Origin: Streptomyces sp. NBC_01571
GTDB taxonomy: Bacteria; Actinomycetota; Actinomycetes; Streptomycetales; Streptomycetaceae
Assembly: GCF_026339875.1 (NCBI RefSeq)
Contig: NZ_JAPEPZ010000001.1
Location: 8,866,001 to 8,930,000 of the forward strand
Length of the DNA stretch: 64,000 nucleotides
Direction of reading: 5' to 3'
A model generated the notes under the pieces. The model made no database searches. It had not been told where the DNA came from and saw only the letters and a list, made by a program, of their open reading frames with translations. Position 1 is the stretch's first letter. Every line of letters starts with the position of its first letter. Of this stretch, positions 8,641-11,810 are shown in pieces. A program made the translations under genes and the position numbers.

Positions 8641-8796
8641 CATGCGCCCAAGATGCCCGTTTCCTTCCTTCTCCTCCCGCGGGCTTCCGGCGGCCTCCGT
8701 GCTTCCTCGTCCGCCGGCTACCCGCGCCGCGGCACTCGCAACAGCCGCCCTGATTGTCAACTCCCCTTGCCTCAGGGGCAATTAACCGATCCCTCA

Positions 8797-8856
8797 TTGG
8801 CCCGCGCGCCCCGTGCGGGTCTAGCATCACCGACGGCCGAATACCCCGCGGGGTAT
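8797..8856 (+). promoter_or_regulatory. Promoter and CsoR/CstR-type operator of the sulfide-oxidation operon
   Basis: A TTGGCC -35 (8797-8802) and a TAGCAT -10 (8822-8827, 19-nt spacer) are followed by the perfect 16-bp palindrome ATACCCCGCGGGGTAT (8841-8856). The ATACCC...GGGTAT form is the operator shape recognised by CsoR-like repressors. The CstR subgroup senses persulfides and controls SQR and CstB genes, exactly the two genes downstream. No repressor gene is adjacent. Confidence 0.75.
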
Positions 8857-8894
8857 GCCTCGGGAGCGTGTCCCGCAGACGGCAAGGAGTCCTC

Positions 8895-10163
8895 ATGTCC
8901 TCCGTGTCTTCCGTACTCTCCGCCTTCGCCCCCCTCTCCACGTTCTCCACGCGCCGCGTCCCCGGCTTCGCCCGTGACCACCACCGGGTGCTGATCGTCG
9001 GCGGCGGCACCGCCGGGATCACGACCGCCGCCCGGCTGTGCCGAGCCGGTGTCAGCGGCGTCGCGGTCCTCGAACCGGCCGCCACCCACTGGTACCAGCC
9101 GCTGTGGACCCTCGTCGGCGGCGGCAGGGCCCCGCTCTCCCTCACCCACCGCCCCGAAGCGTCCGTGATGCCCCGGCGGGCGCGCTGGATCCGCGAGGCC
9201 GCCACCGCCGTCGATCCCGAGGCGCGAACGGTCACCACCACCGGCGGCGTCCACGGCTACGACTTCCTGGTGATGGCCACCGGCCTGCAGCTCGACTGGG
9301 GCGAGGTCCCCGGCCTCGACACGGCCGTCGGGCACGGTGCCGTCTCCAGCAACTACTCCCACGAGCACGCTCCCCACACCTGGGAGCTGATCCGCGGCCT
9401 GCGCTCCGGCACCGCCGTCTTCACCCAGCCCGCCGGCCCGGTCAAATGCGGCGGCGCCCCGCAGAAGATCGCCTACCTCGCCGCCGACCACTGGCGCAGA
9501 CAGGGTGTCCTGGACCGCATCCGGGTGGTCCTCGTCCTGCCCGCCGACTCCATGTTCGGGGTACCGGTCTGGCGCCGGGCCCTGGAACGGGTCGCCGACC
9601 GCTACGGCATCGAGGTCCGGCTGAACTCGGAGATGACCTCCGTGGACGGCGCCGCCCGGCGGCTGACCGTGGCCGACCGTGCCGCCGGTACCGAGGAGAG
9701 CCTCGCGTTCGACCTGCTCCACGCCGTACCGCCGCAGAGCGCCCCCGACTGGGTGCGGCGCGGTCCGCTGGCCGACCCCGCGAGCCCGTACGGCTATGTC
9801 GAGGCCCACCCGTACACGCTGCGCCACCCGCGCCACCGCAACGTCTTCGCCCTCGGCGACGTCGCGAACCTGCCCACCTCCAAGACCGGCGCCGCCGTCC
9901 GCCGACAGGCACCCGTCGTGGTCGCCAACCTGCTGGCCGGGATGAAGGGGGAGCGGGGGGACCGCCGCTACGACGGCTACACCTCCTGCCCGCTCGTCAC
10001 CGCCCGCGACCGGGTGCTGCTCGCCGAGTTCGACTACGCCGGACGGCCCGCGCCCAGCATTCCGCTGGTCGACACGACCAAGGAGCGCCGTGACATGTGG
10101 CTGCTCAAGCGCTACGGCCTGCCCGCCCTGTACTGGCACGGCATGTTGAAGGGGCTCGTCTGA
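8895..10163 (+). CDS. Sulfide:quinone oxidoreductase-like flavoprotein
   Basis: FAD-dependent oxidation of sulfide to persulfide/polysulfide with electrons passed to quinone, probably membrane-associated; 422 aa. It has an FAD dinucleotide motif VLIVGGGTAGITTAARL and a second cofactor motif near FALGDVANLPTSKTGAAVRRQ. Redox-active Cys candidates lie in PVKCGGAPQK and TSCPLV, and the SQR-type C-terminus ends YWHGMLKGLV. ATG 8895 is preceded by AAGGAG (8884-8889); a longer in-frame extension would cross the operator. It is the first gene of a two-gene operon with a CstB-like gene under a CstR-type palindrome, which strongly supports the sulfide role. Confidence 0.88.
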   Translation: MSSVSSVLSAFAPLSTFSTRRVPGFARDHHRVLIVGGGTAGITTAARLCRAGVSGVAVLEPAATHWYQPLWTLVGGGRAPLSLTHRPEASVMPRRARWIREAATAVDPEARTVTTTGGVHGYDFLVMATGLQLDWGEVPGLDTAVGHGAVSSNYSHEHAPHTWELIRGLRSGTAVFTQPAGPVKCGGAPQKIAYLAADHWRRQGVLDRIRVVLVLPADSMFGVPVWRRALERVADRYGIEVRLNSEMTSVDGAARRLTVADRAAGTEESLAFDLLHAVPPQSAPDWVRRGPLADPASPYGYVEAHPYTLRHPRHRNVFALGDVANLPTSKTGAAVRRQAPVVVANLLAGMKGERGDRRYDGYTSCPLVTARDRVLLAEFDYAGRPAPSIPLVDTTKERRDMWLLKRYGLPALYWHGMLKGLV

Positions 10164-10255
10164 CGGCCGGCGTGGGCCGTGTCCGGGCGCGGCCGGGGCT
10201 CTGAGCGCTCGCGCACACCTCCGGGGCACATCTCCACTCGAAGGGAGTGACCGGC

Positions 10256-11810
10256 GTGTTCTTCATCGACCCCCTTGACCTGACCGGTCTCGGCAACCGC
10301 AGCTACCTCGTGGGCGGTCGGCGCACCGCCGTCGCGGTCGACCCACCGCGCGACGTCGAGCGGATGCTGACCGCGGCGGCCCGGCGCGGGGTACGGATAT
10401 CCCACGTCGCCGAGACGCACCTGCACAACGACCACGTCACCGGCGGCCCGGAACTCGCACGGCTCACCGGTGCCGCCTATCTGATCCCCGCCGACGCACG
10501 GATCTCCTTCGCGCACACGCCCGTGCGGGACGGGGACAGGGTGTCCGTCGACCCTGCGGACGCCGTCGCCGGCCTGACCCTCAGGGCGGTGGCCACGCCC
10601 GGCCACACCCCGCACCACACGGCCTACGTGCTGGAGGACGCCGGGACGGCGGTGGCGGTGTTCCGGCGGCTCGCTGCTCATCGGCACGGTGGGCCGCCCC
10701 GACCTCGTCGAGCCGCGCCTGACCGAGGGCCTCGCCCGGGCCCAGCACGCCTCGGCGCACCGGCTGGCCGCCGAACTCCCCGACACCACGGCCGTGCTGC
10801 CCACCCACGGCTTCGGCAGCTTCTGCTCCGCCGGGCAGGGCGGCGGCACGGCCACGACGATCGGCAGGGAGAGGGCGGACAACCCGGCCCTCACCCGGGA
10901 CGTCGACACCCTCGTCGCCGGCCTGCTCGCCGGACTGGACGACATCCCCGCCTACTACACCTACATGGGCCCGGCCAACGCCGCCGGCCCGGCACCGGTC
11001 GACCTCACCCCGCCCGCCGCGGCCGACGCCGAGGAGATCGCCGCGCGGCTGGCCGCGGGGGAGTGGGTGGTGGACCTGCGCAGCCGCGTCGCCTTCGCCG
11101 CCGGCCATGTGCCGGGCTCGTACAACTTCGAGGCCGAAGGGCAACTGGCCGCCTACCTGGCCTGGTTGATCCCGTGGGGCAAGCCGGTGACCCTGCTGGC
11201 GGAATCGGCGGAGCAGTTGGCCGCCGCCCAGCGGGAACTAGTGCCGCGGCAGGCAACGTTCGCCCCGTCGCGACGCCCGGCACGCACTCTCGCCGCACCG
11301 GCCGAAAGCCCAAGTACGTCCAGTACGAGGACTTCCGGCCGGCACGCCGAGAGCACGCACCGGACGCAGCTCCTCGAAGGGCGAACGTTGCCTGCCGCGG
11401 CACTAGTGGGGGTCGGAATCGACCGGCCCGCCGCCGCGGCGACCGGTGAGCCGAAGGGCTGGGTGCGCGAGGGCGAGGTCCCGGGGTCCTTCCCGCGCGC
11501 CGTGTTCGCCGACCTCGCCGACCTCTCCGGGCGGCGCGGGCGTGAGGGCGTCGTGGTCCTGGACGTCCGGCGCGGGGTCGAGCGGGCCCTGGGCTTCGTG
11601 GAGGGCTCGGTCCACATCCCCCTGCACACGGTGCGCCGCCGGCTCGGCGAGATCCCCCCGGGTGAGGTGTGGGTGCACTGCGCGGGCGGAATGCGCGCCG
11701 CCGTCGCCGCCTCCCTGCTCGACGCGGCGGGCCGCACCGTGGTGGCCGTGGACGACGCCTACGCCAACGCCGGGAAGGCGGGGCTCCGCCTCCGCGGCGC
11801 CCGGGGGTGA
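10256..11810 (+). pseudogene. CstB-like persulfide dioxygenase/rhodanese fusion, frameshifted and MITE-interrupted
   Basis: The first part encodes a metallo-beta-lactamase-fold persulfide dioxygenase (ETHLHNDHVTGG metal motif, ATPGHTPHHTAYVL). After a frame change the sequence resumes with GGSLLIGTVGRPDLVEP. Alignment of the two frames shows 2 nt (expected AC of an ACC codon) missing between 10663 and 10664. Downstream are a Cys-less rhodanese (VVDLRSRVAFAAGHVPGSYN) and a C-terminal rhodanese with Cys in WVHCAGGMRAA: the PDO-pseudorhodanese-rhodanese order of CstB. A 165-bp insertion adds 55 in-frame codons between the two rhodanese domains. GTG 10256 has GAAGGGAG upstream. As read, only a truncated dioxygenase of about 135 native residues would be made, unless the shift is a sequencing error. 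Confidence 0.85.
11238..11406. mobile_element. 161-bp palindromic MITE with CTAG target duplication
   Basis: Terminal inverted repeats of 24 bp, beginning TGCCGCGGCAGGCAACG, are perfect at 11242-11265 and 11379-11402. They are flanked by direct CTAG copies (11238-11241 and 11403-11406). The interior is also quasi-palindromic: arms around 11280-11315 and 11320-11355 share CTCTCG, CCGGCCG and GTAC, so the whole element could fold as one hairpin. It carries no transposase. Removing one CTAG plus the element restores REL-VGVGIDRPAAA, the expected rhodanese linker. The CTAG duplication would fit mobilisation by an IS5-type transposase (inference). Confidence 0.88.

What the first reader, a model, noticed from the sequence alone, without database searches (positions are those of the whole stretch)
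11238..11406. Palindromic MITE inserted in frame between two rhodanese domains
A 161-bp element with perfect 24-bp inverted termini and a CTAG duplication sits inside the CstB-like gene. The net insertion is 165 bp (55 codons) and the host frame stays open through it. Excising it restores the expected linker REL-VGVGIDRP. The element lies exactly in the linker between pseudorhodanese and rhodanese, so it could create a new disordered tether. A whole-length hairpin open in a coding frame suggests either selection for coding-neutral insertion or a general property of this MITE.
Basis: partly seen in the sequence, partly recalled or inferred. Interest (0 to 1): 0.8.

Follow-up and report, generated by a model that had tools for sequence, protein, structure and literature searches.

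The report
Streptomyces hairpin element with swappable ends
A tiny mobile DNA hairpin has jumped into a sulfur-metabolism gene of a Streptomyces-like bacterium; its in-frame fit looks accidental, but the hairpin's core recurs in many related species inside the ends of two different jumping-gene families, which is unusual.

Summary
In detail: a 163-bp palindrome (11241-11403) between TA repeats inside CTAG, net +165 bp, frame open, absent from 15 of 15 aligned orthologues. Four full copies exist in this genome. Its ends match Streptomyces IS630-family insertion sequences (23-24 of 26 bp): it is an IS630-type MITE, and the duplicated bases are best read as TA. Coding neutrality is not special: net length varies modulo 3 among relatives, most relatives carry stops, and the host gene has a 2-nt deletion upstream of the insert. 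Unexpected: (1) the ~100-bp core also sits between IS5-type ends, in this genome and across the genus (243 of 295 genomes match the element, some weakly); one copy has one end of each kind; (2) the arms covary and transition mismatches are nearly all G.U on one strand (454 G.U, 10 A.C cells), also in the unrelated ends, suggesting selection on a strand-specific RNA or ssDNA hairpin, or strand-biased mutation; (3) 19 of 37 assessed copies lie on stop codons, which insertion rebuilds, against 16 of 70 background CTAG sites (crude gene caller). New variant of a known kind; function of the core unproven.

The parts
11241..11403 (.). the element (163 bp, begins G, ends C)
11239..11240 (.). left TA of the target duplication (inside CTAG 11238-11241)
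   Evidence: 53 of 61 copies with TA on both sides have C-TA ... TA-G; seven others change only the outer base; one (L091) probably mis-delimited
11404..11405 (.). right TA of the target duplication (inside CTAG 11403-11406)
11241..11265 (+). left terminal inverted repeat, IS630 type
11379..11403 (-). right terminal inverted repeat, IS630 type
11268..11370 (.). core module shared with copies that have IS5-type ends (query positions 31-133 of the 169-bp search)
11274..11368 (-). the part used for the strand and covariation analysis; hairpin of the minus strand with eight G.U consensus pairs
10247..10664 (+). upstream part of the host gene: metallo-beta-lactamase domain
10662..10663 (+). approximate place of a 2-nt deletion relative to all 15 aligned orthologues
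10689..11810 (+). downstream part of the host gene in another frame, carrying the insert and the C-terminal rhodanese domain

Best explanation
It is a non-autonomous IS630-type MITE. SHOWN: copies sit at TA, mostly C-TA-G, begin with G and end with C, and have ends like those of IS630 insertion sequences of the same genus; the orthologous site is empty elsewhere. INFERRED: an IS630 transposase moved it in trans, duplicating TA. The element supplies G on the left and C on the right, so CTAG is rebuilt on both sides and a TAG stop codon on either strand survives insertion; CTAG is rare in this genome, and about half of the assessed copies lie on stop codons. The window copy is a less common case: a CTAG in coding sequence, read in a frame where it is not a stop. 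As this element adds 55 whole codons and has no internal stop, the frame stayed open through the element's own make-up, not through selection in this gene. SHOWN: the inner ~100 bp is a module also found between IS5-type ends; L005 has one end of each kind. INFERRED: ends and core have been exchanged by recombination, and the core is kept as a hairpin of one defined strand (RNA more likely than ssDNA), because mismatches are nearly all wobble-compatible on the minus strand.
For: Four full copies in the genome. Streptomyces IS630 copies with the same ends: 6 of 30 loci read have such ends on both sides (L286, L288, L299, L303, L304, L306); L303 is 1562 bp with a 379-aa transposase matching NF033545 IS630; ends agree with the MITE at 23-24 of 26 positions for the three compared. 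A Rhodococcus IS630 of 1188 bp has the same outer repeat. Copies with other outer bases keep the inner G and C. Empty sites in 15 of 15 aligned orthologues. Same core with IS5-type ends; chimera L005. Strand pattern: 454 G.U against 10 A.C cells, 53 of 53 cores fold better on the minus strand; covariation above 500 of 500 shuffles; outer 20 bp 62 against 13, 32 against 6 elements. Stop codons: 19 of 37 against 16 of 70, Fisher p = 0.0045; own genome alone 7 of 12, p = 0.03.
Against: No IS630 with these ends was found in the own genome: lone ends had no partner, and the one close IS630 transposase has other repeats. The IS5 assignment rests on similar, not identical, ends and a permissive classifier. 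Covariation in a palindrome can also come from arm-to-arm DNA correction, and copies are related. No orientation bias of copies at stop codons (10 with the gene on the + side only, 8 on the - side only, 1 both), which speaks against a role in the upstream gene's mRNA; no promoter was looked for by tool. The background for the stop-codon test comes from the own genome, most copies from others; the gene caller found only 74% coding. Of three annotated plasmid copies one CDS ends exactly on the element's TAG, two do not.
Confidence: 0.72

Rival explanations
1. The core has no function: one palindromic MITE spread recently through the genus, recombination between co-resident elements grafted new ends on it, and the G.U bias is a strand-biased mutation process (C to T on the minus strand) or partly ancestral chance.
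For: Cores are 85-99% alike, as recent spread would give; the tree of cores is mostly unresolved (54 of 75 inner branches open); old, diverged copies show the same bias in their ends, where selection is hard to imagine.
Against: 10 pairs with changes on both sides, 60 such cells against 15.4 in shuffles; the bias depends on the element's own orientation and occurs in two unrelated end families, although own-genome copies lie in both orientations.
Confidence: 0.4
2. One transposase family serves both kinds of end, so there was no change of helper, only divergence of the ends.
For: Both kinds insert at C-TA-G; L005 has one end of each kind and CTAG on both sides.
Against: IS630-type ends bound IS630 genes; ends of IS5 type bound DUF4096 (IS5) genes. 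The two kinds of end show no resemblance to each other in the listing (no alignment test was run).
Confidence: 0.12
3. One reading: the insertion was kept because it is coding-neutral and makes a new flexible linker in a working persulfide dioxygenase.
For: Net 55 codons, no stop, between the rhodanese-like parts; in-frame palindromic elements are known in Rickettsia (PMC10969869, passages).
Against: 2-nt deletion upstream in the host gene; length and stops vary among relatives; zero stops arises in about 10% of palindromic shuffles of this element.
Confidence: 0.07

Closest known systems
RUP (repeat unit of pneumococcus) and IS630-Spn1
   Same: Small non-autonomous element, TA at the target, ends shared with an IS630 insertion sequence (PMC2229807, passages)
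   Different: [quoted passage not shown] here the core is also carried by IS5-type ends, and a strand-specific wobble pattern is seen
Rickettsia palindromic elements (RPE)
   Same: Short palindromic elements inserted in frame in protein genes (PMC10969869 and PMC2229807, passages)
   Different: In RPE this is frequent; here 5 of 37 assessed copies were called coding, and no selection on frame was found
Correia/NEMIS and YPAL/ERIC elements
   Same: Transcribed hairpins that affect neighbouring mRNAs, NEMIS through RNase III (PMC2229807, passages)
   Different: RNA action here is only inferred from sequence; no orientation bias toward upstream genes
Streptomyces IS630 insertion sequences such as L303 and L299
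   Same: Ends alike at 23 of 26 positions, TA flanks
   Different: They carry a transposase gene; presence of the core in them was not tested separately
IS5-family (DUF4096) insertion sequences such as L238, L243, L244
   Same: C-TA-G flanks and ends of similar pattern to the other half of the core-bearing elements
   Different: Partial matches only; no relation to the window copy's own ends

Membership tests
IS630-type MITE | short element without a transposase gene, inverted termini | tested here: met
   163 bp, 25-bp perfect termini
IS630-type MITE | termini shared with an IS630 insertion sequence | tested here: met
   found in other genomes of the genus, not in the own genome
IS630-type MITE | TA target duplication | tested here: met
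   the window copy alone cannot tell TA from CTAG
IS630-type MITE | several copies and empty sites | tested here: met
IS630-type MITE | moved by the IS630 transposase | not testable with these tools
   needs an assay
Rickettsia palindromic elements | sequence kinship with RPE | not tested
   only the manner of insertion was compared, from passages
Rickettsia palindromic elements | frequent in-frame insertion in protein genes | tested here: not met
   5 of 37 assessed copies called coding; four of these five with a frame open through
Known RNA family (Rfam 15) | match at the gathering score | tested here: not met
   only mir-8515 at 28.8 bits, gathering 100 (window 10900-11800)
CstB-like MBL-rhodanese protein (host gene) | MBL and rhodanese domains in one intact frame | tested here: not met

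The most novel reading that the evidence does not exclude
The core is a mobile hairpin module of Streptomycetaceae with a life of its own: selected as a minus-strand RNA (G.U pairs keep the RNA hairpin while making the DNA palindrome imperfect), it recruits ends from different transposase families (IS630, IS5) that share the CTAG target, so it outlives any one helper, and it nests mostly in stop codons that it rebuilds.
Probability: 0.33. Interest if true: 0.85.

Novelty: new variant of a known kind. Interest (0 to 1): 0.6.

Why it matters
If right, a non-autonomous element can change its helper transposase family while keeping a conserved inner hairpin, which would change how MITE families are classified (by their ends) and dated. 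The one-stranded wobble pattern is a cheap, testable sign that a MITE is selected as RNA or single-stranded DNA. The rebuilt TAG suggests how a CTAG-seeking element can multiply in a GC-rich, gene-dense genome with little damage.

Tried and rejected
IS701 as the source: 27 PF13546 matches in the own genome; those whose ends were read use CTAG, CTAA, TTAG or other flanks and have other repeats. IS5 in the own genome: 34 PF13340 matches, 20 loci fetched; one (L217) gave C-TA flanks and an IS5-type end. Phage or viral reservoir: no phage match; the IS5-type end pattern in 0 and the IS630-type in 2 stretches of viral contigs, the two not pursued beyond printing. General selection for frame-neutral length: not supported. 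Hairpin acting in the upstream gene's mRNA: no orientation bias. Core outside the genus: 37 of 394 class genomes matched, 24 of the same genus and 13 others, the others with at most 49 of 95 nt and E of 1e-6 or weaker; two Embleya plasmid records carry good matches to the whole element.

Rows dropped: the automatic end finder chose wrong ends for several loci and is superseded (106 examined; 61 with TA on both sides, 26 on one side, 19 with neither). L018 was dropped from the core alignment (86 examined, 85 kept, 78 distinct); alignment A1 holds 53 of the 78, picked by hand for diversity. In one search, 27 of 64 copies were skipped for want of TA on both sides. One search is a cruder first version; its 'intragenic' labels should not be used. 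Structure prediction was not run.

Papers: PMC10969869, PMC2229807 and PMC1590033 seen as passages; others only as search listings. Not found in print: searches listed no paper whose title or abstract start describes a Streptomyces MITE with this core, exchange of ends between IS families, or nesting in stop codons; they cover open-licence PMC papers only, and most listed papers were not opened.

Full report
What is there. The window holds a perfect 29-nt inverted repeat at 11237-11265 / 11379-11407 around a palindromic element that folds far better than shuffles on both strands. The own genome has four full copies (100, 99, 99 and 96% identity), and the inner part recurs in more (40 of 116 first-look candidates were scored, so a lower bound). 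Fifteen of 15 aligned orthologues of the host gene lack the insert and read straight across the site.

Host gene. It follows a sulfide:quinone reductase-like gene (8754-10163; best NCBIfam match 199 bits, below its cut-off of 525) and encodes metallo-beta-lactamase and rhodanese domains, with PDB 3tp9 and 3r2u as best solved matches. All 15 orthologues have two bases that the window lacks at about 10662-10663, so the assembly splits the gene into two frames. A sequencing error is possible. Until this is checked, a working new linker has no basis.

Which transposase. Of 30 Streptomyces-genus IS630 loci read, six have ends of this type on both sides (125 of 295 genomes had an IS630 match at E <= 1e-30). 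L303 has identical 26-bp ends 1562 bp apart, TA flanks and a 379-aa ORF matching NF033545 IS630. The left ends of L303, L299 and L288 agree with the MITE at 23, 23 and 24 of 26 positions. A Rhodococcus IS630 of 1188 bp has the same outer repeat, with 3 mismatches between its own ends. Of 61 copies with TA on both sides 53 have C-TA ... TA-G; L010, L103, L126 (right) and L110, L123, L263, L267 (left) differ in the outer base but keep the inner G and C, as TA duplication predicts; L091 probably has mis-chosen ends. No IS630 with these ends was found in the own genome; its closest IS630 transposase, in L203, has other repeats.

One core, two kinds of end. In the own genome ten copies (L006-L008, L010-L016) have other ends, 181 bp including both flanking tetranucleotides, yet the same core. 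L005 has an end of each kind at the edges of the core; L036 is a short piece with the opposite combination. Of 78 distinct cores, 42 have IS5-type ends on both sides, 32 IS630-type, 1 mixed, 3 partly or wholly unclassified (permissive matching). The IS5 assignment rests on DUF4096 insertion sequences with C-TA flanks and ends of similar pattern, for example GGGCCTGTCGTCAAA in L238, whose N-terminal transposase part matches IS5; no perfect partner was found, and the two ends of L238 differ at 5 of 18 positions. The tree of cores needs 11 to 13 changes of end type, but 54 of 75 inner branches are open and starred branches force only one or two. A shared variant of the stem occurs with both kinds of end (L073, L075, L078 against L108, L117), which favours repeated exchange.

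Spread. 243 of 295 genomes of the genus match the element at E <= 0.001, some weakly (two candidates scored per genome). In a class-wide sample the strong core matches were all of the same genus; Embleya plasmids also carry the element. That the genus is Streptomyces is inferred from the named matches.

Strand. On the minus strand the core forms 41 pairs, eight of them G.U in the consensus and none A.C; cells are 1654 Watson-Crick, 454 G.U, 10 A.C, 55 other; 53 of 53 cores fold better on that strand. Five covariation measures exceed all 500 shuffles, though related sequences inflate this control, and arm-to-arm DNA correction could give covariation too. The wobble bias is not explained by such correction in any simple way: at Watson-Crick consensus pairs G.U variants outnumber A.C 69 to 10 cells and 18 to 5 pairs. 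In the outer 20 bp, where the two end families differ, transition mismatches are 62 minus-wobble against 13 plus-wobble, besides 60 transversions; by element 32 against 6 with 48 even, by distinct change 28 against 10. Selection on a strand-specific RNA or ssDNA hairpin, or strand-biased mutation, would explain it; I cannot separate these.

Where copies sit. CTAG is rare: 70 in 464 kb against 1239 expected from base composition; 16 of the 70 are TAG stops by a simple GC3 gene caller (coding fraction 0.74, so genes are missed). Of 37 copies with TA on both sides, 19 lie on stop codons, 13 between genes, 5 in coding sequence (p = 0.0045; own genome 7 of 12, p = 0.03). In one RefSeq record the CDS ends exactly on the element's TAG; in two it does not; three regions had no annotation. 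As the element supplies the G and C, TAG is rebuilt on either strand. This fits survival of harmless insertions; active targeting of stops is not shown.

Frame. The window element has no stop triplet in any of six frames; a palindromic shuffle gives that in about 10% of trials, 40 of 61 elements have at least one, and net length is not a multiple of three in 16 of 61. Of five insertions called coding, four leave a frame open through the element. GC content, palindromy and inherited length suffice to explain the open frame.

Conclusion. The reported object is real and is an IS630-type MITE; its in-frame position is most likely accidental and has precedents (Rickettsia elements, passages of PMC10969869 and PMC2229807). 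The shared core with exchanged ends and the one-stranded wobble pattern are the parts worth pursuing.

Noticed in passing
window 10662-10663: 2-nt deletion in the host gene relative to 15 of 15 aligned orthologues; real mutation or sequencing error.
   Followed up: partly
L260-L265, L276, L277, L279: Several IS630-ended elements of other genomes carry an extra ~30-36 bp small palindromic repeat, mostly at the same place in the left arm (L279: right arm); a second small repeat nested in the MITE.
   Followed up: no
L141, L153 (Acidimicrobiales MAGs): Elements of 176 and 196 bp with the same IS630-type ends and CTAG flanks but no significant match to the core: IS630-type MITEs without this core.
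   Followed up: partly
own genome sample, 464 kb: CTAG is about 18-fold depleted (70 against 1239 expected from base composition).
   Followed up: no
L037, L038, L039: Very short elements with IS5-type ends only, without the core.
   Followed up: no
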